DNA of 64,000 nt, taken from positions 620,001 to 684,000 of the forward strand of contig NZ_CAMPOV010000002.1 in the NCBI RefSeq assembly GCF_946892675.1, written 5' to 3'. Of this stretch, positions 3,328-26,806 are shown piece by piece. Below the pieces are notes generated by a model. It saw only the letters and a program-made list of their open reading frames with translations, searched no databases and had not been told where the DNA came from. A program made the position numbers and the translations under genes. Each line of letters begins with the position of its first letter. Positions within the stretch are counted from its first letter, which is position 1. The stretch comes from Arthrobacter sp. Marseille-P9274. Lineage in GTDB: Bacteria > Actinomycetota > Actinomycetes > Actinomycetales > Micrococcaceae.

Positions 3328-4683
3328 CTACGCTTCTGCGAGGAGCTGGCAGGCTGCTGCCGAGTGGTCGGCGATCAGGCCGTCGAGGTCGAGCCCTTCG
3401 ACGCGGCCGTCAATGACGCGCCAGCGACCGCCGACCATGACGCGGTCGGCCCGGTCGGCGCCGCAGAGCAGCAGCGCCGAGAGCGGGTCGTGGCTGCCGG
3501 AGAACCGGAGGCCGTCCAGTGTGAAGAACGCGAGGTCGGCCTGCTTCCCCACTGCGATCTCGCCGATGTCGGTGCGGCCCAGGGCCAGGGCAGAGCCCTT
3601 GGTGGCCCAGCCGAGAGCCCGCTCCGGGGTCGCCAGCTCCGCCCCGTAGCGCAGCCGTTGCAGGTACAGGGCCTGCTTGGCCTCGAGGATCATGTTCGAG
3701 CCGTCGTTCGAGGCGGATCCGTCCACGCCGATCCCGACGTGCACGCCGGCGTCCTCCAGCTCCACCGCGCGGCAGATCCCGGAGGCCAGCCGCATGTTGG
3801 AGCTGGGGCAGTGTGCCACGCCGATGCCGGCGGCACCGAGCCTCGCCACTTCATCATCGTTGAAATGGATGCCATGCCCCAGCCAGGTCCGCGGCCCCAG
3901 CCATCCGACGTTCTCGAGGTAGTCGACCGTCCGCAGGCCGAACCGTTCCAGGCAGAACTGCTCCTCATCGATGGTCTCCGCCAGGTGCGTGTGCAGCCGG
4001 ACGTCATGCGACTCGGCCAGGGCAGCGCTGTCCTTCATGATCTCCGGGGTCACCGAGAACGGCGAGCACGGCGCCAGCGCGATCTGGATCTGCGCACCCG
4101 GCCCGCGCTCGTGGTAGCGGCCGATCAACCGTTCGCTGTCCTCGAGGATCACCTCCGGCGACTGGACCACCCGCTGCGGCGGCAGACCGCCGTCGTCCTC
4201 GCCCAAAGTCATGCTGCCCCTGGTGAGCATGGCCCGCATGCCCAACTCCCGGACCACCTCCACCTGCACGTCCACCGAATCCTCCATCCCGGCGGGGAAG
4301 AGGTAGTGGTGATCGGCGGCCGTGGTGCAGCCGGAGAGCAGCAGCTCGGCCAGCGCGGCCTTGGTGGCGAGCCGGAGGGCCTCGGGGGTCAGCCGGGCCC
4401 AGACGGGATAGAGGTTGACCAGCCAGGGGAACAACGGTACGTTGACCACCGGCCGCCAGGCCCGCGTGAGGGTTTGGTAGAAGTGGTGGTGCGTGTTGAC
4501 CAGGCCCGGCAGCACCACATGGGCGCCGGCATCGAATACCGAGCCCCAGCAGGTCTGCGGCTCCCGGCCTGCGGGCACGAGCTCCGCGATGGTGCCGCCT
4601 TCAACGACGAAACCGCCGGCAGCGTCCTCCGTGTTTGCGGTGAAGACGGCCAGCGGGTTGCGGATCCAGATTCGTTCGGCCAT
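3328..4683 (-). CDS. 8-oxoguanine deaminase / guanine deaminase-like amidohydrolase
   Basis: A 451-residue amidohydrolase with the metal-binding NTHHHF motif near the N-terminus, then HTHLAE, GHGIHF and GVDGSASND, in the order seen in the AtzA/TrzN/8-oxoguanine deaminase branch. Known members deaminate 8-oxoguanine or guanine, giving urate or xanthine. The start chosen is the ATG preceded by GAGGAGAGA; an ATG 13 codons upstream lacks a good ribosome site. The gene is convergent with the XDH operon and lies upstream of no other minus-strand gene. Its position between xanthine dehydrogenase and uricase fits purine salvage or catabolism. Exact specificity (8-oxoguanine, guanine, isocytosine) is an inference. 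Confidence 0.8.
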   Translation of the reverse strand: MAERIWIRNPLAVFTANTEDAAGGFVVEGGTIAELVPAGREPQTCWGSVFDAGAHVVLPGLVNTHHHFYQTLTRAWRPVVNVPLFPWLVNLYPVWARLTPEALRLATKAALAELLLSGCTTAADHHYLFPAGMEDSVDVQVEVVRELGMRAMLTRGSMTLGEDDGGLPPQRVVQSPEVILEDSERLIGRYHERGPGAQIQIALAPCSPFSVTPEIMKDSAALAESHDVRLHTHLAETIDEEQFCLERFGLRTVDYLENVGWLGPRTWLGHGIHFNDDEVARLGAAGIGVAHCPSSNMRLASGICRAVELEDAGVHVGIGVDGSASNDGSNMILEAKQALYLQRLRYGAELATPERALGWATKGSALALGRTDIGEIAVGKQADLAFFTLDGLRFSGSHDPLSALLLCGADRADRVMVGGRWRVIDGRVEGLDLDGLIADHSAAACQLLAEA

Positions 4684-4819
4684 GGGTCTCTCCTCATCAG
4701 TTGCAGTATCGAAGCCGAGCATCCAAGGGACGACGGCGGTGCCGCCAGCTCAGTTACGTCCTGTCTGCTGATCCAGGAGACCATCAACAATGGCCGGCCC
4801 GGGCGGTGGAAGCCCGGGG

Positions 4820-4852
4820 GCCGGGCCGGCTCCGCGGTGGAGCCGGCCCGGC
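4820..4852 (-). terminator. Hairpin downstream of the purine permease
   Basis: GCCGGGCCGGCTCC pairs perfectly with GGAGCCGGCCCGGC across a 5-nt loop, giving a 14-bp stem that begins 13 nt after the permease stop. There is no long U-run, as is common for actinobacterial terminators. It would separate the permease transcript from the deaminase gene downstream. Confidence 0.6.
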
Positions 4853-4865
4853 CTGAGGTACGTTG

Positions 4866-6470
4866 TCAGTTGTCCTTTCCGGCCGGGCGGATACCGGCGT
4901 CGGGTTCGTCCGAAACCTCTTCCTCGCAGATCCGGCGGATGTCCTCGGGGCAGGTCACCTCGCCCCGGTCCAGCTTCTCCTTGACCACCTGGTACTGCTG
5001 GGCGGTCACGACCGGAATCTCGGTTCCGTCCGCGGCGATCAGCTTGCCGCCCTGGTAGTAGTCGCCTTCCTCGAGCGCGTGCAGCTCCTCGACGCGCACC
5101 ATCCGCGGGGGGCTGGCCACCAGCGTGGACTGCTTCTCCGAATTGCCGGCCTTCAGCTGGTTGAAGAGCAGGTTCAGCAGCACGGCCATGATTGCCGCGG
5201 AGCTGATGCCGGAGTGGAAGATAATGCCGAACCAGGTGGGGAACTGGTCGTAGAACTCGGGCTTGACCACGGGGATCATGCCGAAGGCCAGCGACACGGC
5301 CACAATGACCATGTTCATGTTGTCCTTGTAGTCCACCTTGGACAGCGTGCGGATGCCGCTGGCGGCCACCGTGCCGAAGAGCACGATGCCGGCGCCGCCC
5401 AGGACGGGAGTCGGCACGGCGGCGACGACGCGGCCGAGCACCGGCAGCAGCCCGAGCACCAACATGATGGCGCCGCCTGCGGTGACGACAAAGCGGCTCT
5501 TCACGCCGGTGATCGCCACCAGGCCCACGTTCTGCGCAAAGGCGGTCTGGGTGAAGGAGTTGAACACCGGCGCGAGGGCGCTGGAGAGCATGTCCGCGCG
5601 GAGCCCGTCGGCGATACGCCGGGAGTCCACCTTGGTCTTGGCGATCTCGCCCACGGCGAGGATGTCCGCCGTCGTTTCCGTCATGGTCACGAGGATAACG
5701 ATGGTCATCGAGATGATGGCGGCCACGTCGAAGACCGGCCAGCCGAAGGCGAACGGCTGCGGGATGGCGAAGATGGCCCCGTTGCCCACGTTGGAGAAGT
5801 CGGCCATCCCCAGCAGTGCCGCGATGACGGTGCCGGCGACGATGGCCAGCAGGATGGACAGCCGGGAGATGGCGGCGTTGCCGAGTTTGCTCAGCAGCAG
5901 GACCAGTGCCAGTGTCAGGGCTGCCAGCCCGATGTTGGGCAGGCTGCCATAGTTCTCGGCCTGTGCGTTGCCCCCCATGGCCCAGTTGGCCGCCACAGGC
6001 ATCAGGGTCAGGCCGATCGTGGTGATGATGACGCCCGTGACGACCGGCGGGAAGAACCGGATGACCTTGGCGAAGAACGGGGCGATCACCAGGCCGATCA
6101 CGGAGGCCACCAGGACGGATCCGAAGACCATCTGGATTCCGCCGCCGCCGCTGAGGATCGCGGTCATCGTGGCGACGCCGGCGAAGGAGACGCCTTGGAC
6201 CAGCGGAAGCTGCGAGCCGAAGAACTTCACTCCATAGCTCTGCAGGATGGTGGCCGCGCCGCCCACGAAAAGGCAGCTGGCGATCAGAAGTGCGATTTCG
6301 TCCTGGGATAGTCCGGCTGCGTTCCCCACGATCAGCGGGACCGCAATGATGCCGCCGTACATTGTGAGGACGTGCTGGAGACCGTACGTGAAGGACCTGC
6401 CCACCGGCAGGCGTTCGTCCTCAGGTCTTTGTGCGGTTAAAGTCTTGGTTGTGGCTTTTGCTGCATTCAC
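4866..6470 (-). CDS. NCS2-family nucleobase (urate/xanthine) permease
   Basis: A 534-residue polytopic membrane protein of the nucleobase:cation symporter-2 family, with about 12-14 hydrophobic segments. The QxxLTMYGG-like stretch (LQHVLTMYGGIIAVPL) in TM1 and the MTETTADILA segment are family hallmarks; the latter is the substrate-binding loop. Members import urate, xanthine or uracil with a cation. The GTG start is preceded by AAGGAGGT at ideal spacing; an upstream frame extension lacks a ribosome site. The C-terminal 70 residues are hydrophilic and acidic. It follows uricase on the same strand, so urate or xanthine is the likely cargo. Confidence 0.88.
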   Translation of the reverse strand: MNAAKATTKTLTAQRPEDERLPVGRSFTYGLQHVLTMYGGIIAVPLIVGNAAGLSQDEIALLIASCLFVGGAATILQSYGVKFFGSQLPLVQGVSFAGVATMTAILSGGGGIQMVFGSVLVASVIGLVIAPFFAKVIRFFPPVVTGVIITTIGLTLMPVAANWAMGGNAQAENYGSLPNIGLAALTLALVLLLSKLGNAAISRLSILLAIVAGTVIAALLGMADFSNVGNGAIFAIPQPFAFGWPVFDVAAIISMTIVILVTMTETTADILAVGEIAKTKVDSRRIADGLRADMLSSALAPVFNSFTQTAFAQNVGLVAITGVKSRFVVTAGGAIMLVLGLLPVLGRVVAAVPTPVLGGAGIVLFGTVAASGIRTLSKVDYKDNMNMVIVAVSLAFGMIPVVKPEFYDQFPTWFGIIFHSGISSAAIMAVLLNLLFNQLKAGNSEKQSTLVASPPRMVRVEELHALEEGDYYQGGKLIAADGTEIPVVTAQQYQVVKEKLDRGEVTCPEDIRRICEEEVSDEPDAGIRPAGKDN

Positions 6471-6536
6471 AGCTGACCTCCTTGTCGGCTGGGGAGGTCG
6501 GGGCGCGCCCACCGCGTCCCGACCTCCGGCATGTGG

Positions 6537-7445
6537 CTAGCAGAATCCGGCGATGTTCGCCCAGATCGGGTGGTCAGCGCGCGAGCCCTCGCGCTGGATG
6601 GTGGCTTCGATCAGTCCGTAGGGACGGTCGGCGGCGAAGAACACCTCGTTGGGGTTGTCCTGTCCGAAGGGCTGCAGGTCCACCAGGAAGTGGTGCTTGT
6701 TCGGCAGGGACATCTTGATTTCGTCGATTTCCGGGTGCGCCTCGATGACGGCCCTGCCCATTTCGAACATGGTCTGCTGCAGGGCCAGCGAGTGGGTCTC
6801 GGCGAAGGCCTTCAGCAGCAGCCCGCGGACGTTCGCGTAGACGGCGTCGAAGTCCACATCGACCGTGTTGTAGCGCCAGCGGGCGCTGACATCCGTGGCG
6901 AGGATGCGGTCGGTGGTTTCCTGCAGGGTGGTGTACTTGTCCCGCGGGAAGCCGTGGAACTCCGAACCGGTGGACTTCAGGACCGTCAGGCCCTCGATCC
7001 CGGCGACGATGGACTGCTCTTCGCCCGAGATCTCGAGTACGGCCGTGCGCACCTCGCTCTTGTTGCGGGAGAAGGCGTGGTCGTGGTCGTTGATGCGGTC
7101 CCAGAAGAACTGCTGCGCCGCCCAGCGCCCGCCGGTCACCCAGTCGAAGCCCTCGGTGAAGTGCCTGCCCAGCCGGAGCAGGAACTCCTCGGTGGTGGCG
7201 AAGCCATCGCGGGCGAAGGCGTAGACTGTGTTCTTCTGCGTGTCGGTGGCGACCACGTGCGCGTTGTCGCCGGCAGTGTGGGCGGCCTCGAAGTCGCCGC
7301 GCAGCTGCGAGGTGACGTTAAGGTCCTGGATCTCGTGCCGGGTGGTGTCGCGCGTGACCTTGACGAGGCGGACTTCGGCCTTGCCGTACTGGTTCTGTCC
7401 AAGGACGACCTTGGTGCCGGTTGAGGTTTCTGCGGTGGCAGTCAT
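6537..7445 (-). CDS. Urate oxidase (uricase)
   Basis: A 302-residue cofactor-free uricase that converts urate, O2 and water to 5-hydroxyisourate and H2O2. Visible family features are the NQYGKAEVRLVKV N-terminal motif with the catalytic lysine near residue 22, the TDTQKNTVYA motif with the catalytic threonine near 68, and NKHHFLVDL near the C-terminus with the third active-site residue, His. The length is normal for the single-domain enzyme. It begins 2 nt after hydroxyisourate hydrolase ends, and it ends about 65 nt before the permease starts, so all four genes form one minus-strand operon. Confidence 0.95.
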   Translation of the reverse strand: MTATAETSTGTKVVLGQNQYGKAEVRLVKVTRDTTRHEIQDLNVTSQLRGDFEAAHTAGDNAHVVATDTQKNTVYAFARDGFATTEEFLLRLGRHFTEGFDWVTGGRWAAQQFFWDRINDHDHAFSRNKSEVRTAVLEISGEEQSIVAGIEGLTVLKSTGSEFHGFPRDKYTTLQETTDRILATDVSARWRYNTVDVDFDAVYANVRGLLLKAFAETHSLALQQTMFEMGRAVIEAHPEIDEIKMSLPNKHHFLVDLQPFGQDNPNEVFFAADRPYGLIEATIQREGSRADHPIWANIAGFC

Positions 7446-7447
7446 GG

Positions 7448-7789
7448 CTAACTCCCTCGGTAGGTTGAGAATGCAAACGGGCTGATGAGAAGTGGTACGT
7501 GGTAGTGCTCTGCCGGTTCCTTCACCTCGAAGGCCAGCTCCACGAACGGGAAGAAGGTTTCCGTTCCCTTCTGCCCGAAGTAGGGCCCGGTTTCGAAGAC
7601 GATCCGGTATATCCCTGCTTCGACCGCCTCGGGACCCAAGTTCTTGATACGGCCGTCATTGTCCGTACGGGCCGAGGCGATTTCTTGCCAGCCGGTTGCC
7701 GATTTGGCTTCCAGAGTGGCCTTGACACCGGAGGCAGGCCTCCCGGTCCCGGTGTCGAGAATGTGGGTAGTGACATGGCTGACGCTCAT
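7448..7789 (-). CDS. uraH: 5-hydroxyisourate hydrolase (transthyretin-like)
   Basis: A 113-residue transthyretin-related protein that hydrolyses 5-hydroxyisourate to OHCU. It has the N-terminal SHVTTHILD block with the catalytic His, an internal Arg in the SARTDNDGR segment, and the C-terminal YRGS tetrapeptide that defines this family. Its ATG overlaps the stop of the OHCU decarboxylase gene by 4 nt (ATGA), implying translational coupling, and uricase starts 2 nt after it. Confidence 0.96.
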   Translation of the reverse strand: MSVSHVTTHILDTGTGRPASGVKATLEAKSATGWQEIASARTDNDGRIKNLGPEAVEAGIYRIVFETGPYFGQKGTETFFPFVELAFEVKEPAEHYHVPLLISPFAFSTYRGS

Positions 7790-8280
7790 GCTTCGATGAC
7801 TCCTTCAAGTCGGAGGATGGCGATTTCGCGGAGCTGCTGGGCCACGACGGCGATTTCTTCGTCGGGCGAGTTGTGCAGGCGCTTCTGCAGCTGCTCGAGG
7901 ATGTCTTCGGCGCTGCGGCCGGCGGCCCGGATCAGGAAGACCCGGTCGAATTTTTCCTCGTAGGCGCGGTTTCCCGCGTCGAGCGCGGCCTGGACTTCGG
8001 CGGAACGTACGACGCCGGACTGCTCGTTCCGCGACATCCCCGCCTCCGCGCTGTTTCCGGCGGCGCGCTCCCCGATCCGGGGATGGTGCGCCAGCGCGGC
8101 GTCGATCTCTGCGGTGGTCCAGGGTGCGGCGGCCCGGCCCGCGAAATCGATCAACTCGCCGCGGTTGGCGAAGGGCCGGAGGGCGACGATCTCCTCTACC
8201 CAGCGGTCGATATCCACGCAGGGCCGGAGGACGGCTGCCGCTTCGGCGGCCGGTGAGTCATTAAAGGAGGAAAAATCCAT
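7786..8280 (-). CDS. uraD: OHCU decarboxylase
   Basis: A 164-residue 2-oxo-4-hydroxy-4-carboxy-5-ureidoimidazoline decarboxylase, which completes urate conversion to (S)-allantoin. The HPRIGE motif with the catalytic His and the SRNEQSG motif are both present, as is the EEKFDRVFLIRAAGRS block. It is the first gene of the uraD-uraH-uricase-permease operon. There is no clear ribosome site before the ATG at 8280, so the start is the only plausible one in frame rather than a well-supported one. No allantoinase lies in the window, so the pathway must continue elsewhere. Confidence 0.93.
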   Translation of the reverse strand: MDFSSFNDSPAAEAAAVLRPCVDIDRWVEEIVALRPFANRGELIDFAGRAAAPWTTAEIDAALAHHPRIGERAAGNSAEAGMSRNEQSGVVRSAEVQAALDAGNRAYEEKFDRVFLIRAAGRSAEDILEQLQKRLHNSPDEEIAVVAQQLREIAILRLEGVIEA

Positions 8281-8369
8281 GGCGGGTGTCAGCTTTCAGT
8301 AAGGCTTCTCGATACAGCGCTGAACACCCTTGACCATCGATTTGCAATCGACTTGATTCGATGTTTTTG

Positions 8370-8396
8370 TATCGCGGAATTTTTATTTCGAAAATA
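8370..8396 (-). promoter_or_regulatory. 27-bp operator-like block upstream of uraD (shared with aceE)
   Basis: On the plus strand the block starts TATCGCGGAAT and ends CGAAAATA, with a T-rich middle. It is identical to the block at 12136-12162 except at two positions. Its core is CGGAAT-N4-ATTTCG, a one-mismatch inverted repeat. It lies about 90 bp upstream of the uraD ATG. No regulator gene for it is evident in the window. Confidence 0.6.
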
Positions 8397-8474
8397 GTGT
8401 AAGCCCGCTCACACGAACCCTGTCAAGGGTATCGGCAACGATCTTTTTGCAACAGAGTCCCGGGCCGAAAACTC

Positions 8475-8504
8475 TTGACCAGCCAGGCCGGGACATCCTA
8501 GTCT
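8475..8504 (+). promoter_or_regulatory. Candidate promoter of the 55-codon gene
   Basis: TTGACC at 8475-8480 and TAGTCT at 8499-8504 are separated by 18 bp, a good housekeeping-type spacing. The start point would fall in the left arm of the adjacent inverted repeat, about 40 nt before the ribosome site AAGGAG. Confidence 0.5.
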
Positions 8505-8539
8505 TTCGTATAGCAATAACAAAGTTCCACGATACGAAA
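8504..8539. promoter_or_regulatory. Inverted repeat TTTCGTAT-N20-ATACGAAA
   Basis: Two perfect 8-bp arms lie at 8504-8511 and 8532-8539, just downstream of the promoter-like pair and just upstream of the AAGGAG ribosome site at 8541-8546. The position suits either a repressor operator or a small RNA stem. It is not seen at the partner site before aceE. Confidence 0.5.
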
Positions 8540-8552
8540 CAAGGAGCAGGCC

Positions 8553-8720
8553 ATGACCCAGATCAACCAAGCGCCGCCGTCACACTCCCCCGCATATGAA
8601 GCGGGAGGTTCCGACCCCGACTTCTACCTGCCGCCCGTCAGGACCGACAGTGCCGGCCTCCTCGCGAAGATTCTGCGCAACATCCCAGGGCTGTCCGCAC
8701 TGCTGCGCGGCTCGCGCTAA
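8553..8720 (+). CDS. 55-residue small protein of unknown function
   Basis: ATG at 8553 has AAGGAG six nucleotides upstream and runs 55 codons to TAA. The product is Pro- and Ser-rich in its first half and has a short hydrophobic, basic C-terminal segment (LLAKILRNIPGLSALLRGSR), which could be amphipathic. I recognise no family. It has its own promoter-like sequence and a strong inverted repeat, and it diverges from the urate operon, so it may be co-regulated with urate catabolism. Codon use looks typical for the window. Confidence 0.6.
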   Translation: MTQINQAPPSHSPAYEAGGSDPDFYLPPVRTDSAGLLAKILRNIPGLSALLRGSR

Positions 8721-8787
8721 ATAGGCAGAGCCCAGCTTCCGTCAGGCCGGCCAAGGTGCCACTGTTTTCCACCCGAACTTGCACTCA

Positions 8788-8805
8788 AATTGCTAAGTAT
8801 GCTTA
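8788..8805 (+). promoter_or_regulatory. TAAG-N4-CTTA motif upstream of the glsB relic
   Basis: AATTGCTAAGTATGCTTA carries the palindrome TAAG-N4-CTTA. The same 18 bp with one change sits at the same place before the intact glsB gene (16373-16390). This shows that the promoter of the broken copy is still recognisable. Confidence 0.55.
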
Positions 8806-8808
8806 CCG

Positions 8809-9186
8809 TCATGGCAAGCCATTAAGACGCAACCATGCGGTTTCATCATTGAACCGAACGTTCTTGGGTTCGTTTTTTCCGTGATCGCAGTCGTACTGCT
8901 GATCGGTGTCGCCGAGGGCTTCGCCGGCCGCCGCAGCCTCCGCCGCTAGCCTCAGGCCTGGGCGTCCTGGCCCCGCCCGCAGGTCGAAATGGAGCCTCTT
9001 CTTGCTGGCCTTGCCTTCCGGCACCGGAACGACATCGATGGACGGCCAGGCCCCGTCGGGCGGCCCGATCGTGATGAAGCCGCTCTCCTGTTCCAGGACC
9101 CGCCAATCGAGGACCTTGCACCAGAAGTCCGCCACTTTAGGCGGATTGACGTCACCGATAACGATGACAGCTAAGCGGCTCGCCAT
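8809..9186 (-). CDS. VOC/glyoxalase-like protein with a replaced C-terminus
   Basis: The first 70 residues match the glyoxalase-like (VOC) fold: MASRLAVIVIGDVNP, then FWCKVLDW, IGPPDGAWP and KKRLHFDL. The remaining 55 residues are unlike the family and run antisense through the glsB relic, so the second half of the domain appears to have been lost when the two were joined. ATG at 9186 is chosen; a GTG three codons upstream is possible and neither has a strong ribosome site. It is probably non-functional or altered. Confidence 0.5.
   Translation of the reverse strand: MASRLAVIVIGDVNPPKVADFWCKVLDWRVLEQESGFITIGPPDGAWPSIDVVPVPEGKASKKRLHFDLRAGPGRPGLRLAAEAAAAGEALGDTDQQYDCDHGKNEPKNVRFNDETAWLRLNGLP
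8835..8949 (+). pseudogene. Internally deleted glsB/YeaQ-family copy
   Basis: The first codons and last 31 codons of a GlsB/YeaQ/YmgE-type membrane protein are joined with the centre missing. The start (ATG, then a stop after five codons because of a frameshift) matches the intact gene at 16420, as does the upstream sequence from 8788. The tail encodes LNVLGF...VLLIGVAEG...GRRSLRR before TAG, nearly the same as the intact protein's end. About 150 bp of the middle is gone. This is a paralogous relic, not a working gene. Confidence 0.8.
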
Positions 9187-9282
9187 GGCAACCACCGTGG
9201 GGGAGCATCACAGCTACCGGATAGGCAAACCGGCCAAGGGCCGGCAGCACGTTTACGATCCTGCCCCCTCGCTCCGGCCGGC

Positions 9283-9320
9283 CGAATGTGGCCCCTCCTT
9301 TCGGGGAGGGGCCACATTCG
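9283..9320 (-). terminator. 16-bp hairpin after aceE
   Basis: CGAATGTGGCCCCTCC at 9283-9298 pairs perfectly with 9305-9320 across a 6-nt loop. It begins about 20 nt past the aceE stop and is the strongest stem in this area. It probably ends the aceE transcript before the VOC gene. Confidence 0.75.
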
Positions 9321-9339
9321 TTCCGCGGCCGCATCGGGA

Positions 9340-12078
9340 CTACGCGTCGCCGCCTGCGGTCCCGGAGGTGCCAGCGCTGACGTCGTCCAGACGGTAGCGG
9401 CGGAAGGCCTCGACGGCAGCGTTGGCGGGAACTTTGCCTTCCTCGGCCAGCAGCTGCAGGGTCCGGACAACAATAGAGTGGCTGTCGATGTTGAAGAACC
9501 GGCGGGCGGCGGCGCGGGTATCTGAGAAGCCGAAGCCATCGGCGCCGAGCGTGGCGAAGCGGTGCGGCAGAAACTGCCGGACCTGGTCTGGGACCTGCGC
9601 CATGTAATCGGATACAGCGACAACGGGGCCTTCGGCATTCTCGAGCTGCCGGGCGATGAACGGCTTGCGGGCGTCGGCGCCGGGATTCAGGAAGGCTTCC
9701 CGCTCCGCGGCGAGGCCGTCGCGGCGCAGTTCGGTCCAGCTGGTCACGGACCAGACATCGGCGGAGACGTTCCACTCCTCGGCGAGGATCTGCTGGGCCT
9801 CGAGCGCCCACGGGACAGCAACGCCTGAGGCCAGCAGCTGGGTCTTCGTGCTTGCGGCTCCGCCTTCCTTGAGCCGGTAGATGCCGCCCAGGACGCCGTC
9901 GACGTCGAGGTCCTGCGGCTCAGCCGGCTGGACGATGGGCTCGTTGTAGACGGTCAGGTAGTACATGACATTCGGGTCCGGGTGGTTCCCGCCGTACATG
10001 CGCTCCAGGCCGGCCTTCATGATGTGCCCGATCTCATAGCCATAGGCCGGGTCGTAGGTGACGACGGCCGGGTTGGTCGCTGCGAGGACCGGGGAATGTC
10101 CGTCGGCGTGCTGGAGGCCCTCGCCGGTCAGGGTGGTCCGGCCGGCGGTTGCACCGATGACGAAACCGCGCGTCATCTGGTCCGCGGCGGCCCAGAAGGA
10201 ATCGCCGGTCCGCTGGAAGCCGAACATCGAGTAGAACACGTAGATCGGGACCAGAGGCTCGCCGTGCGTGGCGTAGGACGTGCCGGCTGCGGTGAACGCC
10301 GCGACGGCGCCGGCCTCGTTGATTCCGGGATGGATCAGCTGTCCGGCGGGCGACTCCTTGTAGGCGAGCACCAGGTCGCGGTCCACCGAGAGGTAGTTCT
10401 GCCCGGAGGGATTATAGATCTTCGCCGTCGGGAAGAAAGCGTCCATGCCGAAGGTGCGCGATTCGTCCGGCACGATCGGGACCACCCGGTTGCCGAATTC
10501 CTTGTCCCGCATCAGGTCCTTCAGCAGCCGGACGAAGGCCATCGTCGTGGCGGCCTGCTGCTTGCCGGAGCCCCGCTCGGCGACTTCGTAGGCCTTGGCC
10601 TCGGGCAGCTTCACGGCGGCGTGGCCGCTGCGCCGGGCCGGGACGGAGCCGCCGAGTGCCCGGCGGCGCTGCAGCAGGTACTTGATCTCCGGCGCGTCCC
10701 GGCCGGGGTGGTAGTACGGCGGGCGGTACGGGTCCGACTCAAGGACCTCGTCACTGATCGGAATCCGCAGGTGGTCGCGGAACTGCTTAAGGTCCTCGAG
10801 CGTGAGCTTCTTCATCTGGTGGGTCGCGTTGCGGCCCTCGAAGCGGCTCCCGAGGCCGTATCCCTTCACGGTCTTCACCAGGACAACCGTCGGCTTGCCC
10901 TTATGGTCCATGGCCGCCTTGTAGGCCGCGTATACCTTCCGGTAGTCGTGGCCTCCGCGCTTGAGGTTCCAGATCTGCTCGTCGGTCAGGTCCGCGACCA
11001 TTTCCTTGGTCTGCGGGGTCTTGCCGAAGAAGTGCTCCCTGACGAATCCGCCGGACTCGGCCTTGTAGGTCTGGTAGTCACCGTCCGGCGTCGTATTCAT
11101 CAAGTCGACGAGGTGGCCCTCGTGGTCCTTGTCCAGCAGACCGTCCCACTCCCGGCCCCAGACCACCTTGATGACGTTCCAGCCGGCACCGCGGAAGAAC
11201 GCTTCCAGTTCCTGCATGATCTTGCCGTTGCCGCGGACCGGGCCGTCGAGGCGCTGCAGGTTGCAGTTCACCACGAAGGTCAGGTTGTCCAGCTTCTCCT
11301 GCGCCGCGAGCTGCAGCAGCCCGCGGGATTCGGGCTCGTCCATTTCGCCGTCGCCAAGGAAGGCCCACACGTGCTGGTCCGAAGTGTCCTTGATGCCGCG
11401 GTTCTGCAGGTACCGGTTGGACTGCGCCTGGTAGATCGCGTTCATCGGGCCGATGCCCATCGAGACCGTCGGGTACTCCCAGAATTCCGGCATCAGGCGG
11501 GGATGCGGGTAGGACGAGAGCGCGTGCCCGGCCTTGGACTTTTCCTGCCGGAAGCCGTCAAGGTCCTCTTCGCCGAGGCGCCCTTCGAGGAAGGCCCGGG
11601 CGTACATGCCGGGGGAGGCATGGCCCTGGAAGAAGACCTGGTCTCCGCCGCCGGGATGGTCCTTGCCACGGAAGAAATGGTTGAAGCCGACTTCGTACAG
11701 GGTCGCGGCCCCGGCGAAGGTGGAGATGTGTCCGCCGACTCCGATCTCGGGATGCTGAGCCCGGTGGACCATGACGGCGGCGTTCCAGCGCATCCAGGCC
11801 CGGTAGCGGCGCTCGGTCTCTTCGTCGCCCGGGTACTGCGGCTCCACGTCGGACGCGATCGTGTTGATGTAATCGGTCGTCATGCCCAGCGGAACATCCA
11901 CCCGGCGGGAACCAGCGCGCTCGAGCAGCGAACGCATGATGAAGCCGGCGCGGGCCGTTCCGCGGGCATCGATCAGCTGGTCCAGGGATTCGGACCATTC
12001 GGCCGTCTCTTCCGGGTCATGGTCTCCGAAGCCGCCGGCCGGGAGGTTCGCAGCGGTGAAATCGTCGATGGCGGTCAT
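9340..12078 (-). CDS. aceE: Pyruvate dehydrogenase E1 component, homodimeric type
   Basis: A 912-residue thiamine-diphosphate enzyme that decarboxylates pyruvate and acetylates the lipoyl E2 subunit. It has the AceE layout: an N-terminal TPP-binding domain with [14 protein letters not shown], the [10 protein letters not shown] metal/TPP motif with its downstream [14 protein letters not shown], and a central pyrimidine-binding domain around [13 protein letters not shown]. The ATG at 12078 is preceded by GGAAGAGG; a TTG two codons upstream is less likely. The gene stands alone with its own hairpin terminator and an operator-like block in its promoter. E2 and E3 are not in the window, as is usual in actinobacteria. 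Confidence 0.97.
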
Positions 12079-12135
12079 GTGCAACCTCTTCCTTGAGGGG
12101 CAGAGTTCTCCTGCCGCTCTTGCAGCATAGTTTCA

Positions 12136-12162
12136 TATCGCGGAATCTTTATTCCGAAAATA
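12136..12162 (-). promoter_or_regulatory. 27-bp operator-like block upstream of aceE (shared with uraD)
   Basis: The block starts TATCGCGGAAT and ends TTCCGAAAATA. Its core CGGAAT-CTTT-ATTCCG is a perfect 6+4+6 inverted repeat. On the aceE strand it lies 58-84 nt upstream of the ATG, just ahead of a TATGCT sequence that could be the -10 box, so a bound protein would cover the -35 region. Confidence 0.65.
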
Positions 12163-12244
12163 TAGGCTACAGTGAACACAGGCGACCGGCCGTCTGTCAA
12201 AGCCTGCCGCCTCTTCACCCGCCGACCACTGGAATGAGGACCAC

Positions 12245-13012
12245 ATGGATCGGGATCCCTCGGCACCCCGGATGCGCACCGCCGTCGTCACCGGAGCCGG
12301 CTCCGGCATTGGCCGGGCCGTGGCACGGCAACTGCTGGACGCCGGATTGGCCGTGGCGCTGGCCGGGCGACGCGTGGAGGCTCTCCACGAAACCGCGTCG
12401 GGACATGGGGAGGCGCTCGTGGTTCCCGCGGACATCACCGATGCCGGGCAGGTGGAGGCGCTTTTCGGCCGCGTGCGCGAGGCCTGGGGCAGGCTCGACG
12501 TGCTGTTCAACAACGCCGGCTCCTTCGGCCCGGCCGCCGCGGTGGACGAGATCGACTTGGCGGACTGGAACGCGACGATCGCGGTCAACCTCACCGGAGC
12601 GATGCTCTGCGCGGCCGAAGCGTTCCGGGTCATGAAGGGCCAGCAGCCCCAGGGCGGGCGGATCATCAACAACGGCTCGATCTCCGCTCATGTGCCGCGC
12701 CCCCGCTCGGTGGCCTACGCCGCCACTAAACATGCGCTCACCGGGCTGACCAAGTCGATCGAACTCGACGGCCGGCCCTACGGAATCAGCTGCGGCCAGA
12801 TCGACATCGGCAATACCGCCACGGCCATCGTGGCGCACACCGGAGCCGACACCGGAGCGCTGCAGCCCGATGGAAGCCGTCGGCCTGAGCCCACCTTCGA
12901 TGTGGAGGAGGCCGCGCGCGCTGTCGTCCTCATGGCCACGATGCCGGCCCAGGCCACCATCAACCAGCTCACGATCACCGCCGCCGGCATGCCCTACATC
13001 GGGCGCGGCTGA
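12245..13012 (+). CDS. SDR-family oxidoreductase
   Basis: A 255-residue classical short-chain dehydrogenase. It has the TGAGSGIG nucleotide-binding loop near residue 17, the NNAG motif near 90, and the catalytic Ser with YAATK near 160. The substrate is unknown. The start at 12245 has a GAGG-like ribosome site; an internal ATG nine codons later is an alternative. It is divergent from aceE and lies 9 nt before pyruvate kinase, so it is likely co-transcribed with pyk, an unusual partner. Confidence 0.85.
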
Positions 13013-13021
13013 GGAGGAACC

Positions 13022-14440
13022 ATGCGCCAAGCCAAGATCATCGCCACCTTCGGTCCGGCCCTGGCCGGCTACGAACGCACGCTTGCCGCGCTCGAGGCGG
13101 GCACCGACGTCGTACGCCTGAACATGAGCCACGGCGAGCACTCGGTGCACGAGGAAACCTACCGCAACGTCCGCCGGGCTGCCGCCACCCTGGACCGGCC
13201 CGTAGGCATCTTCGCGGACCTGCAGGGACCGAAAATCAGGCTGGGGCGCTTCGCGAGCGGGCCGCACGAGCTTGGGGCCGGGGACCGCTTCACCGTCACG
13301 ACGGCGGACGTTCAGGGCACCCGCGAGCGGGTCTCAACCACATACCCCGGCCTGCCCGGCGACGTGCGGCCCGGTGACACGCTGCTGATCGACGATGGCA
13401 AAGTGACGCTCCGCGCGGTGGACGTCGACGCACAGAACGTGGTCACCGAAGTCGTGGTCGGCGGACACGTCTCCAACAACAAGGGCATTAACCTCCCCGG
13501 CGTCGCCGTGAACGTGCCCGCCCTGAGCGCCAAGGACGAGGCAGACCTGCGCTGGGCGCTGCGCACCGGTGTAGACATGGTGGCGTTGTCCTTCGTGCGC
13601 AGCGCCGAGGATATCAGCCGCGTGCACGACATCATGGATGAGGAAGGACGGCTGACTCCGGTCATCGCCAAGATCGAGAAGCCGCAAGCCGTCGACGCGC
13701 TGGAGGAAATCATCGACGCCTTCGACGCCATCATGGTGGCCCGCGGCGATCTGGGTGTGGAGCTGCCGCTGGAGGATGTGCCAGTGGTGCAGAAGCGGGC
13801 CATCGAGCTGGCCCGCCGCGCCGCGAAGCCTGTCATCGTTGCGACGCAGGTTCTTGAGTCCATGATCGAGAACCCGCGGCCGACCCGCGCGGAGGCCTCG
13901 GACTGCGCGAACGCCGTCCTCGACGGCGCCGACGCGGCCATGCTTTCCGGCGAAACCAGCGTCGGCCGCTACCCCATCGACGCCATACGGACCATGGCCC
14001 GCATCATCGAATCCACCGAAGAGCATGGACTGGAACGCATCCAGCCCCTCGGCAGCACACCAAAGACCCGCGGCGGCGTGATCACCCGCTCCGCCGTTGC
14101 CATGGCGGCCCAGCTGGATGCGCGGTGCATCTGCGTACTCACCCAATCAGGCGACTCGGCGCGGCGTCTGGCGCGGCTGCGTCCGCCCAAGCCGCTCTAC
14201 GCCTTCACTCCCCTGCCGGCCTCCGTCAACGAGCTCACCCTGGCCTGGGGAATCCGGCCGCAGCTTGTGGACTTCGTATCCCACACCGACCAACTGGCGG
14301 CGCAGGTGGATCGAATCCTGTGCGAGCGGGGACTGGCGGGAATGGGCGACCTGGCCGTCATCGCGGCGGGCTCTCCCCTGGGCAAAGCCGGGACCATCAA
14401 TTCGCTGCGCCTGCACCGCATCGGGGACCTGGACGCCTAG
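13022..14440 (+). CDS. pyk: Pyruvate kinase
   Basis: A 472-residue enzyme that converts phosphoenolpyruvate and ADP to pyruvate and ATP. Diagnostic blocks are QAKIIATFGPA at the N-terminus, LNMSHG, FADLQGPKIRLG, the IAKIEKPQA motif with the catalytic Lys, and MVARGDLGVELP with the metal ligands. Length is normal for the bacterial enzyme. GAGGAGG upstream of the ATG sets the start, 9 nt after the SDR stop. Confidence 0.97.
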   Translation: MRQAKIIATFGPALAGYERTLAALEAGTDVVRLNMSHGEHSVHEETYRNVRRAAATLDRPVGIFADLQGPKIRLGRFASGPHELGAGDRFTVTTADVQGTRERVSTTYPGLPGDVRPGDTLLIDDGKVTLRAVDVDAQNVVTEVVVGGHVSNNKGINLPGVAVNVPALSAKDEADLRWALRTGVDMVALSFVRSAEDISRVHDIMDEEGRLTPVIAKIEKPQAVDALEEIIDAFDAIMVARGDLGVELPLEDVPVVQKRAIELARRAAKPVIVATQVLESMIENPRPTRAEASDCANAVLDGADAAMLSGETSVGRYPIDAIRTMARIIESTEEHGLERIQPLGSTPKTRGGVITRSAVAMAAQLDARCICVLTQSGDSARRLARLRPPKPLYAFTPLPASVNELTLAWGIRPQLVDFVSHTDQLAAQVDRILCERGLAGMGDLAVIAAGSPLGKAGTINSLRLHRIGDLDA

Positions 14441-25980: not shown

Positions 25981-25995
25981 TTCTGATATGCAGAA
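25981..25995. promoter_or_regulatory. IclR operator candidate 2, overlapping the start codon
   Basis: TTCTG-ATATG-CAGAA repeats the half-sites and spacing of the 25901 site, and its centre is the ATG of the IclR gene. This suggests autorepression. Confidence 0.65.
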
Positions 25996-26806
25996 CACGA
26001 AGGTCCAGCGCACCAAGCCGACCTACGCCATCGAAGCCGTGGACAACGCGCTGCAGCTGCTGCAACTGCTGCGGGACCTCGGCAGGGTGCGGCTCAAGGA
26101 CGCGGCCGCGGAGCTCGGCGTCGCTCCGTCTACCGCCCACCGGCTGTTCGCCATGCTGGTCTACCGCGGCTTCGCCGTCCAGGACGAGACCAAACAGTAC
26201 CTGCCCGGCCCCTCGCTGGACGCCGCCCCGGCGGGGGTCAGCTGGACCACGCAGCTCCGCCGGGTCTGCCAGCCGCACCTGGAACTGCTCGCCTCGCGCG
26301 TGAACGAGACCGTCAACCTCATGATCCGGGTGGGCAGCCAGGCCCGGTTCCTCAGCACGGTCGAGGGCACCAACATCCTCCGAATCGGCGACCGCCAGGG
26401 GGCCGTCCTGCCGGCCCGGAGCGCCTCCGGGGGCAAGGCCATGCTCGCGGAACTGGAGCCGGCCCAGCTGCATCAGCTCTTCCGCCCCAACAGCTCGGGC
26501 ACTGGCGGCGCCGGCGAGATCATCCCCGACGTCGAGCACCCGGGCTTCCTCCGGGAGCTCGAGGCGATCAGGCAGAACGGCTTCGCCGCCAACTTCGAAG
26601 GCACGGAGGAAGGCGTGAGCGCGCTGGGCGTGGCTATCCACAACGGCGCGGGCGAGGCGCTCGGCGCGGTCAGCGTCGCCGTCCCGGCCACCCGCTTCCG
26701 GCAGGTCTTCGACAACGGGCTGCCCCAGGAGGTGCTGCGCTGGCGGCAGGAACTCGAGCTGGACCTGAAGTCCTTCCTCGTCCCCGATGACGGGCCTGCA
26801 GCATAG
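25988..26806 (+). CDS. IclR-family transcriptional regulator
   Basis: A 272-residue protein with an N-terminal winged helix-turn-helix (VRLKDAAAELGVAPSTAHRLFAMLVYRGF) and a C-terminal effector domain (SRVNETVNLMIRVG, ASGGKAMLAELEP, EGTEEGVSALGVAIHNGAGEALGAVSVAVP). The ATG at 25988 lies inside a palindrome matching a site 80 bp upstream, so it probably regulates itself and the divergent lipoprotein gene. There is no conventional ribosome site before the ATG, so the transcript may be leaderless. The effector is unknown; IclR members often sense small carboxylates. Confidence 0.88.
   Translation: MQNTKVQRTKPTYAIEAVDNALQLLQLLRDLGRVRLKDAAAELGVAPSTAHRLFAMLVYRGFAVQDETKQYLPGPSLDAAPAGVSWTTQLRRVCQPHLELLASRVNETVNLMIRVGSQARFLSTVEGTNILRIGDRQGAVLPARSASGGKAMLAELEPAQLHQLFRPNSSGTGGAGEIIPDVEHPGFLRELEAIRQNGFAANFEGTEEGVSALGVAIHNGAGEALGAVSVAVPATRFRQVFDNGLPQEVLRWRQELELDLKSFLVPDDGPAA

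What the first reader, a model, noticed from the sequence alone, without database searches (positions are those of the whole stretch)
8370..12162. A 27-bp block is shared by the urate-operon and aceE promoters
The sequences at 8370-8396 and 12136-12162 differ at only two of 27 positions, and both face the minus-strand gene. The aceE copy has a perfect CGGAAT-N4-ATTCCG core. Two unrelated promoters sharing such a long block is best explained by one regulator that joins purine breakdown and pyruvate oxidation. I know of no described regulator with this exact site; IclR/PdhR-type proteins bind palindromes of this size.
Basis: partly seen in the sequence, partly recalled or inferred. Interest (0 to 1): 0.72.

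Follow-up and report, generated by a model that had tools for sequence, protein, structure and literature searches.

The report
Shared operator linking urate and pyruvate genes
The shared DNA block is very probably a binding site for one regulator that switches on a waste-purine pathway, including a spare copy of a pyruvate-burning enzyme, and in front of the urate genes the same letters also form part of a conserved RNA fold that matches no family in the library searched.

Summary
The block is real: 25 of 27 positions match, chance gives none, and no other site in the 4.78-Mb genome comes within two mismatches of a 21-base version. The conserved element is a 25-bp three-box site, GRAA-N6-TTYC-N7-GRAA, on the minus strand at 8365-8389 (urate operon) and 12131-12155 (aceE). 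A matrix trained only on the malic-enzyme/iclR promoter of 28 relatives finds both. The likely regulator is an IclR-family repressor encoded 3.9 kb before the window, with most of the glyoxylate-binding positions of IclR/AllR. The promoters are not unrelated: this aceE is a second copy in a purine-to-glyoxylate island holding malate synthase and malic enzyme. The second copy has the site in 8 of 8 loci, the main aceE in 0 of 9. A third operator (8504-8539) precedes a 55-aa ORF. In the urate leader the middle box is also the 5' strand of a covarying RNA stem; two different leader RNAs precede uraD in relatives, and neither matched Rfam. The regulator idea is largely right, "unrelated promoters" is wrong, and the overlapping RNA is the most novel part. 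All of it is sequence evidence; nothing was bench-tested.

The parts
8365..8389 (-). Three-box operator of the urate operon, GAAA-N6-TTCC-N7-AAAA (GAAATAAAAATTCCGCGATACAAAA)
   Evidence: 11 of 12 positions; own-genome operator model hit, E 0.003
12131..12155 (-). Three-box operator of aceE2, GGAA-N6-TTCC-N7-GAAA (GGAATAAAGATTCCGCGATATGAAA)
   Evidence: 12 of 12 positions; best own-genome operator model hit, E 0.0017
8504..8539 (+). Third operator in the interval: TTTC-N7-AATA-N6-TTCC-N7-GAAA, just upstream of the small ORF
   Evidence: 15-mer at 8525, score 17.3; E 0.83
8396..8426 (-). Predicted urate-operon promoter TTGACA-N18-TTACACT; the operator starts 6 nt past it (a steric-block position)
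   Evidence: TTGAC lies 41-54 nt before the TTYC box in 26 of 35 loci. No start site mapped
12171..12200 (-). Predicted aceE2 promoter TTGACA-N18-TTCACT
   Evidence: seen by eye in all 7 aceE2 upstream regions printed
8279..8379 (-). uraD 5' leader RNA, type A: P1, P2 ACAUC/GGUGU, P3 hairpin, UCAGC/GCUGA helix reaching the ribosome-binding region
   Evidence: (90.3 bits; the window species is one of the 20 training rows); no Rfam match
8368..8379 (-). P1 5' strand UUCCGCGAUACA of the leader RNA, the same bases as the operator's middle box and part of its third box
8308..8316 (-). P1 3' strand UGUAUCGAG, pairs with CGAUACA
7786..8280 (-). uraD (OHCU decarboxylase), first gene of the urate operon
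   Evidence: TIGR03180, 188 bits, above its cut-off
3328..7789 (-). Rest of the urate operon: HIU hydrolase (7448-7789), uricase (6537-7445), NCS2 purine permease (4866-6512), 8-oxoguanine deaminase (3328-4722)
   Evidence: all above the cut-offs of their models. Operon structure inferred from order and strand
9340..12078 (-). aceE2, second copy of homodimeric pyruvate dehydrogenase E1
   Evidence: TIGR00759, 1367 bits; the other copy at C1:1788674-1791358 is 82% identical
8553..8720 (+). Small ORF, 55 aa, conserved YEAGGSDPDFYxPP core, divergent from uraD
   Evidence: tblastn in held loci: 8 genus genomes (E 1.6e-32 to 2.7e-07), weaker in G043 (1.9e-05), G039 (0.003) and G025 (0.012); no Pfam match

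Best explanation
The block is the operator of an IclR-family repressor, functionally like IclR/AllR, encoded at G000:C2:615302-616060 beside malic enzyme in the same purine-catabolism island. Three GRAA/TTYC boxes of alternating direction lie on one face of the helix, just downstream of the -10 hexamer, so bound repressor would block transcription. When purines are degraded to glyoxylate, glyoxylate should release the repressor. That would turn on the urate operon, the gcl-hyi glyoxylate operon, malate synthase with malic enzyme, the small ORF, and aceE2, a dedicated second E1 that turns the pyruvate made from malate back into the acetyl-CoA used by malate synthase. At the urate promoter the same bases also encode the 5' strand of a leader-RNA stem, which probably adds a translational control. 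Shown by sequence: the sites, their conservation, the second aceE copy, the regulator gene and most of its pocket, and RNA covariation. Inferred: protein-DNA binding, repression, glyoxylate as signal, and the RNA's function.
For: A half-site matrix trained on the malic-enzyme/iclR intergenic region of 28 relatives (own species among them), not on the two sites in question, ranks aceE2 second (24.5) and urate fifth (14.0) among 25-mers on both strands of 84 kb; rank 1 is the hyi/gcl promoter (30.4), ranks 3-4 the malic/iclR training site. In the 20-kb regions of G001, G003, G004 and G008 the same matrix puts aceE2 first and uraD second; in G006 they are first and third; in G002, on separate short contigs, each is first. 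aceE2 promoters: 8 of 8 at 12/12; main aceE promoters: 0 of 9 above 9/12. uraD upstream regions of genomes with the iclR gene: 46 of 57 at 11 or more of 12, 7 at 10, 4 lower; mononucleotide shuffles reach 11 in 3 of 1220. The sequence-only operator model gives four own-genome hits at E up to 10, all in the island: aceE2, uraD, hyi and small ORF (all four were training rows). Regulator: IclR_C E 1.7e-37, HTH_IclR E 2.5e-19; best curated relatives BhcR and E. coli IclR. Of the pocket positions listed in PMC11323563, Gly160, Asp212, Ser239 and Ser241 are kept (read).
Against: No binding, expression or ligand data. The own malic/iclR site is not among the four operator-model hits of G000, although it was a training row, so the model is imperfect. 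BhcR, IclR and AllR scores are all far below their cut-offs; pocket position 161 is Val, and of the four hydrophobic-patch positions only Met146 is kept (143 Ala, 154 Ala, 220 Val). The third box of the urate copy in this species is degenerate (AAAA). In four genomes (G031, G058, G081, G039) the best uraD match lies about 235-245 nt upstream, not at the leader. In G007 the uraD site is not among the nine best of its 20 kb. G079 has an operator (11/12) but no iclR hit; its assembly has about 160 contigs. G005 has the iclR gene but no operator hit and no aceE2. Another IclR-family gene lies at window 25988-26803, and its sites could look alike. aceE2 with the site was looked for only in the genus.
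Confidence: 0.82

Rival explanations
1. The urate copy is conserved mainly as RNA (P1 stem of a leader) and its likeness to the aceE2 DNA site is secondary.
For: P1 strands covary: matched strands pair at -13.27 kcal/mol on average against -8.93 (sd 0.48) after shuffling partners, 0 of 20000 as good (27 representatives). In G009, which has no iclR hit, the GRAA boxes are gone but TTCCACC and its RNA partner remain.
Against: uraD promoters without either leader (G014, G077, G089, G096) keep the three-box site at 12/12. The GAAA box lies outside P1. aceE2, hyi and the small ORF carry the site without this leader: R1 finds only 8279-8379 in the window and nothing in L041 at E up to 0.01.
Confidence: 0.1
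2. A different regulator (another IclR paralogue, or a GntR or PucR type) owns the site.
For: A second IclR-family gene lies at window 25988-26803. A GntR-type gene stands divergent from a purine/allantoin-type permease that has an operator hit in L187; L175, L182 and L176 look alike.
Against: The same operator sits in the region shared by this iclR gene and malic enzyme: 28 of the 30 loci fetched (of 61 listed hits) match the search pattern, and the other two show a similar site by eye. The site fits the published IclR-family pattern (PMC8222616). Of four uraD-bearing family genomes without an iclR hit, scores are 8, 9, 10 and 11 of 12.
Confidence: 0.1
3. The two blocks are similar because of recent local duplication, not function.
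For: They lie 3.8 kb apart and are 93% identical.
Against: The alignment of the two intergenic regions stops at the 27 bp. In other genus members the two sites differ from each other, yet each keeps the same 12-position pattern. uraD operators occur in many other genera of the family, where aceE2 was not looked for.
Confidence: 0.02

Closest known systems
IclR-family three-box operators (Suvorova and Gelfand 2021, PMC8222616; abstract and passages seen)
   Same: Group 1 subtype WTTYCRYW3RYGRAAW plus a group 2 pair (TGRAACAN1-2TGTTYCA), three boxes of alternating direction; the paper gives 18-22 nt between centres of tandem sites, and boxes of one direction here are 21 bp apart
   Different: The words Arthrobacter, Micrococc and purine do not occur in its main text; its supplements were not available. 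No overlapping RNA appears in the passages seen
E. coli AllR and IclR
   Same: IclR-family repressors of allantoin/glyoxylate genes whose DNA binding glyoxylate weakens (PMC11323563, passages); their listed sites are GGAA-N5-TTCC palindromes (PMC8222616, Table 1)
   Different: This protein scores far below the AllR, IclR and BhcR cut-offs; its operator adds a third box; its predicted targets include aceE2 and the urate genes
Xanthine (NMT1) riboswitch (PMC7373994, PMC8266621; passages seen)
   Same: Leader RNA tied to purine oxidation
   Different: Reported from alpha-, beta- and gamma-Proteobacteria and, by its authors, not seen with genes for degrading oxidized purines; no Rfam match here; stems and junctions differ by my reading
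Dicarboxylic acid cycle for glyoxylate (recalled)
   Same: Glyoxylate plus acetyl-CoA to malate, to pyruvate, back to acetyl-CoA
   Different: Here a dedicated second aceE appears to be co-regulated with it
Allantoin-inducible glyoxylate-to-pyruvate pathway of Pseudomonas aeruginosa (PMC12694930; search listing only)
   Same: Glyoxylate from purines is turned into pyruvate by an inducible gene cluster
   Different: Other organism; not compared further

Membership tests
IclR-family regulator | IclR helix-turn-helix and IclR C-terminal effector domain | tested here: met
   HTH_IclR E 2.5e-19, IclR_C E 1.7e-37
IclR-family regulator | TTYC-N7-GRAA palindrome and alternating boxes near the regulator gene and its presumed targets | tested here: met
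IclR-family regulator | Direct DNA binding as dimer or tetramer | not testable with these tools
   No binding data
AllR (E. coli type) | NCBIfam AllR score above cut-off 406 | tested here: not met
   110.4 bits
AllR (E. coli type) | Glyoxylate-binding pocket residues | tested here: inconclusive
   4 of the 5 oxygen-binding positions listed in PMC11323563 kept, 161 is Val; 1 of 4 hydrophobic-patch positions kept; read by eye from the alignments
PdhR (GntR family) | GntR-family regulator of aceE | tested here: not met
   The gene beside the operator is IclR-family; the PdhR site and gene were not searched for
Xanthine (NMT1) riboswitch or any Rfam 15 family | Covariance-model match | tested here: not met
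   0 matches at E up to 1 in 20 uraD loci; in window 7900-12700 only suhB, 18.6 bits against a gathering score of 41, E 2
Riboswitch | Conserved structured leader with covariation | tested here: met
   the controls do not keep relatedness
Riboswitch | Specific ligand binding that changes expression | not testable with these tools
   No ligand test

The most novel reading that the evidence does not exclude
One short stretch carries two codes. As DNA it is the three-box operator of a glyoxylate-sensing IclR repressor; as RNA it is the closing stem of an undescribed riboswitch that senses a urate-pathway metabolite and controls translation of uraD. Two structurally different leader classes (type A in many Micrococcaceae genera, type B in others and in a second family) evolved over the same operator at the same gene.
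Probability: 0.42. Interest if true: 0.85.

Novelty: new variant of a known kind. Interest (0 to 1): 0.62.

Why it matters
It gives a testable regulon joining purine oxidation to glyoxylate and acetyl-CoA recycling through a dedicated pyruvate dehydrogenase E1, with a regulator gene and exact sites. It also points to two leader RNAs in front of urate-degradation genes. The xanthine riboswitch authors saw no genes for degrading oxidized purines under their class (PMC7373994, passage), so a class that does control such genes would fill that gap.

Tried and rejected
Rejected: the inner palindrome alone as the motif, since with mismatches it is only mildly above chance and is not the conserved unit. 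A general aceE operon under this control was rejected because the main aceE lacks the site. Rfam was rejected for the leaders, NMT1 also on its published stems and junctions (passages). Two distant hits of leader model R1 were set aside as probable chance: L156 lies inside a predicted gene, L157 in a predicted ORF whose start is uncertain. MAFFT misaligned the P1 3' strand, so RNAalifold on A1 gave no P1; P1 was tested by swapping strands between species, which does not keep relatedness. There G025 pairs poorly (-4.2 kcal/mol) and the own partner ranks first in 6 of 27 (ninth for the window species). The single-sequence fold of the window leader also lacks P1. I first suspected a broken allantoinase; it is an intact frame. 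Ten literature searches listed no paper on these leaders or this regulon in the open-access library held; most subscription papers are not in it.

Rows dropped before counts: two malic/iclR loci (L070, L088) failed the search pattern and were left out of training. G053 was dropped from the type A set because the start chosen by the pattern was not its leader. Rows with identical P1 strands were collapsed, 31 to 27, and identical cores, 31 to 28. G007's main aceE upstream was not scored.
Full report
OBSERVATION. The two 27-mers are present as described and differ at 2 positions; aligning the two intergenic regions returns exactly that stretch. They are the only matches in the window at up to 3 mismatches, none being expected, and the only matches in the own genome at up to 2 mismatches of a 21-base version. 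Both precede minus-strand genes: uraD, head of a urate operon with HIU hydrolase, uricase, a purine permease and 8-oxoguanine deaminase, and an aceE.

WHAT SURROUNDS THEM. The window is G000:C2:620001-684000. The 20 kb before it (L041) holds a glycerate kinase, a TPP enzyme read as glyoxylate carboligase, an oxidoreductase read as tartronate semialdehyde reductase, an amidohydrolase read as allantoinase and a cytidine-deaminase-fold protein read as guanine deaminase (Pfam; the specific names are from their sequences and context). It also holds a hydroxypyruvate isomerase-like protein (below its cut-off), malate synthase A, malic enzyme and an IclR-family regulator. The window opens with a xanthine-dehydrogenase-like protein, below the curated cut-offs. 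The aceE here is a second copy: another, 82% identical, lies at C1:1788674-1791358. The window-type copy is found in 8 of 10 genus genomes, in G007 only as contig fragments; G005 and G009 lack it. The G006 contig that carries the site has the same length (418261) as the Arthrobacter mangrovi NBRC 112813 record in which the site was found.

THE REAL ELEMENT. uraD promoters across the family show, after TTGACA...TTACACT, the pattern GRAA-N6-TTYC-N7-GRAA. The promoter region shared by malic enzyme and the iclR gene holds a longer version in 28 of 30 loci by pattern, and in the other two by eye. A half-site matrix from that promoter alone ranks hyi/gcl, aceE2, malic/iclR and urate at the top of 84 kb, and aceE2 and uraD first and second in the 20 kb of G001, G003, G004 and G008. 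In neighbouring stretches of relatives without these genes its best scores were 14.7 (L049) and 11.8 (L051), with none of 6 or more in L044, L054 and L055. So a score near 14, like the urate copy's own, is not decisive alone; conservation is what carries it. Counting 12 fixed positions: aceE2 8 of 8 at 12; main aceE 0 of 9 above 9; uraD in genomes with the iclR gene 46 of 57 at 11 or more, 7 at 10, 4 lower (G049, G072, G053, G005). In G049 and G072 the upstream DNA looks coding, G053 is cut by a contig end, and G005's uraD is only 51% identical. Shuffles reach 11 in 3 of 1220. Four uraD-bearing family genomes without an iclR hit score 8, 9, 10 and 11. Of 13 genomes searched with the operator model, 11 had hits at E up to 10; G005 and G009 had none. 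The own genome had four: aceE2, uraD, hyi and the small ORF, all training rows; the own malic/iclR site was not among them. Some relatives carry further sites before a purine/allantoin-type permease (L187; L175 and L182 look alike) and a peroxiredoxin (L179); the own thiol peroxidase gene has a 15-mer at L041:675.

HOW IT PROBABLY WORKS. Boxes of one direction are 21 bp apart, two turns of the helix, and the site lies just after the -10 hexamer, which suits a repressor (inference). The regulator's closest curated models are BhcR and E. coli IclR, both below cut-off. Four of five oxygen-binding pocket positions listed in PMC11323563 are kept, but only one of four in the hydrophobic patch that contacts pyruvate's methyl group; BhcR also lacks that patch in the paper's table. 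Glyoxylate, the end of the ureide pathway, is thus the likely signal (inference). Pathway logic: glyoxylate plus acetyl-CoA gives malate, malic enzyme gives pyruvate, and aceE2 restores acetyl-CoA (established chemistry; its use here is inferred).

A SECOND CODE IN THE SAME BASES. Of 55 uraD upstream regions carry a type A leader, 13 type B and 10 neither (one search counted 30/13/12; G057 and G030 are type A with a changed spacer). Type A forms P1 between TTCCRC..ATAC and a downstream strand. Matched strands pair at -13.27 kcal/mol against -8.93 (sd 0.48) with swapped partners, 0 of 20000 as good; the P3 hairpin gives -9.40 against -4.95, 0 of 20000. In this species both P1 strands differ from its neighbours together (CGATACA/TGTATCG). 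Model R1 finds all 29 type A loci supplied, the window among them (20 were training rows, 9 were not), and none of the 7 other loci supplied; covariation is 0.281 against 0.128 shuffled, for P2, P3 and the UCAGC/GCUGA helix. Among 297 order genomes it hits 7: five at uraD, two set aside as probable chance. The window leader alone folds with GGGUGUUCAGC paired to GCUGACACCC next to the start codon, z -2.33, and without P1, as expected if two folds compete, but equally what one would see if P1 were weak here. Type B shows compensatory changes in two stems: 18 of 18 loci supplied match R2 (13 training rows, 5 found with R2 itself), covariation 0.191 against 0.089. R2 hits 11 of 297 order genomes, three of them in another family; six are known uraD loci, and the five others precede uraD or, in L195, a uraD-like start followed by HIU hydrolase. 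Neither leader matched Rfam 15. The shuffles do not keep relatedness, so these numbers are not probabilities. G009, without an iclR hit, has lost the outer boxes but kept P1, while promoters with neither leader keep the boxes: the two functions can be separated.

KNOWN OR NEW. The operator fits a published IclR-family three-box type (PMC8222616, passages). The regulon with a dedicated aceE2 and the leader RNAs were not found in the paper searches listed under Tried and rejected. I file the operator as a new variant of a known kind and the leaders as candidate, not proven, riboswitches.

Noticed in passing
window 8553-8720 (+): Conserved 55-aa protein with a YEAGGSDPDFYxPP core, divergent from uraD and under its own operator; no Pfam match; function unknown.
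   Followed up: partly
L196, L197, L198; uraD leaders in L102, L105-L108, L112, L113, L120, L121, L124, L131, L133, L135, L191, L195: Type B leader RNA, AUGCUGAAAUAACAGUUCC...GGAUGCCAGCA, with compensatory changes; present in two families, before uraD in the loci examined.
   Followed up: partly
L041:665-700: Operator-like 15-mer just before a thiol peroxidase gene next to the allantoin genes; a similar site lies before a peroxiredoxin in G039 (L179). It may protect against peroxide from uricase (inference).
   Followed up: partly
window 12076-12115 (-): aceE2 leader has a conserved GGCAGGAGAACTCTGCC hairpin-like stretch before the ribosome-binding site in genus members (by eye).
   Followed up: no
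window 12245-14440 (+): A short-chain dehydrogenase and a pyruvate kinase are divergent from aceE2; the operator lies about 90 bp before the first, so they could share the control.
   Followed up: no
L041:10774-12282 (-): A DUF6986 protein (HpcH/HpaI aldolase-like, 582 bits) directly follows malate synthase in the island; function unknown.
   Followed up: no
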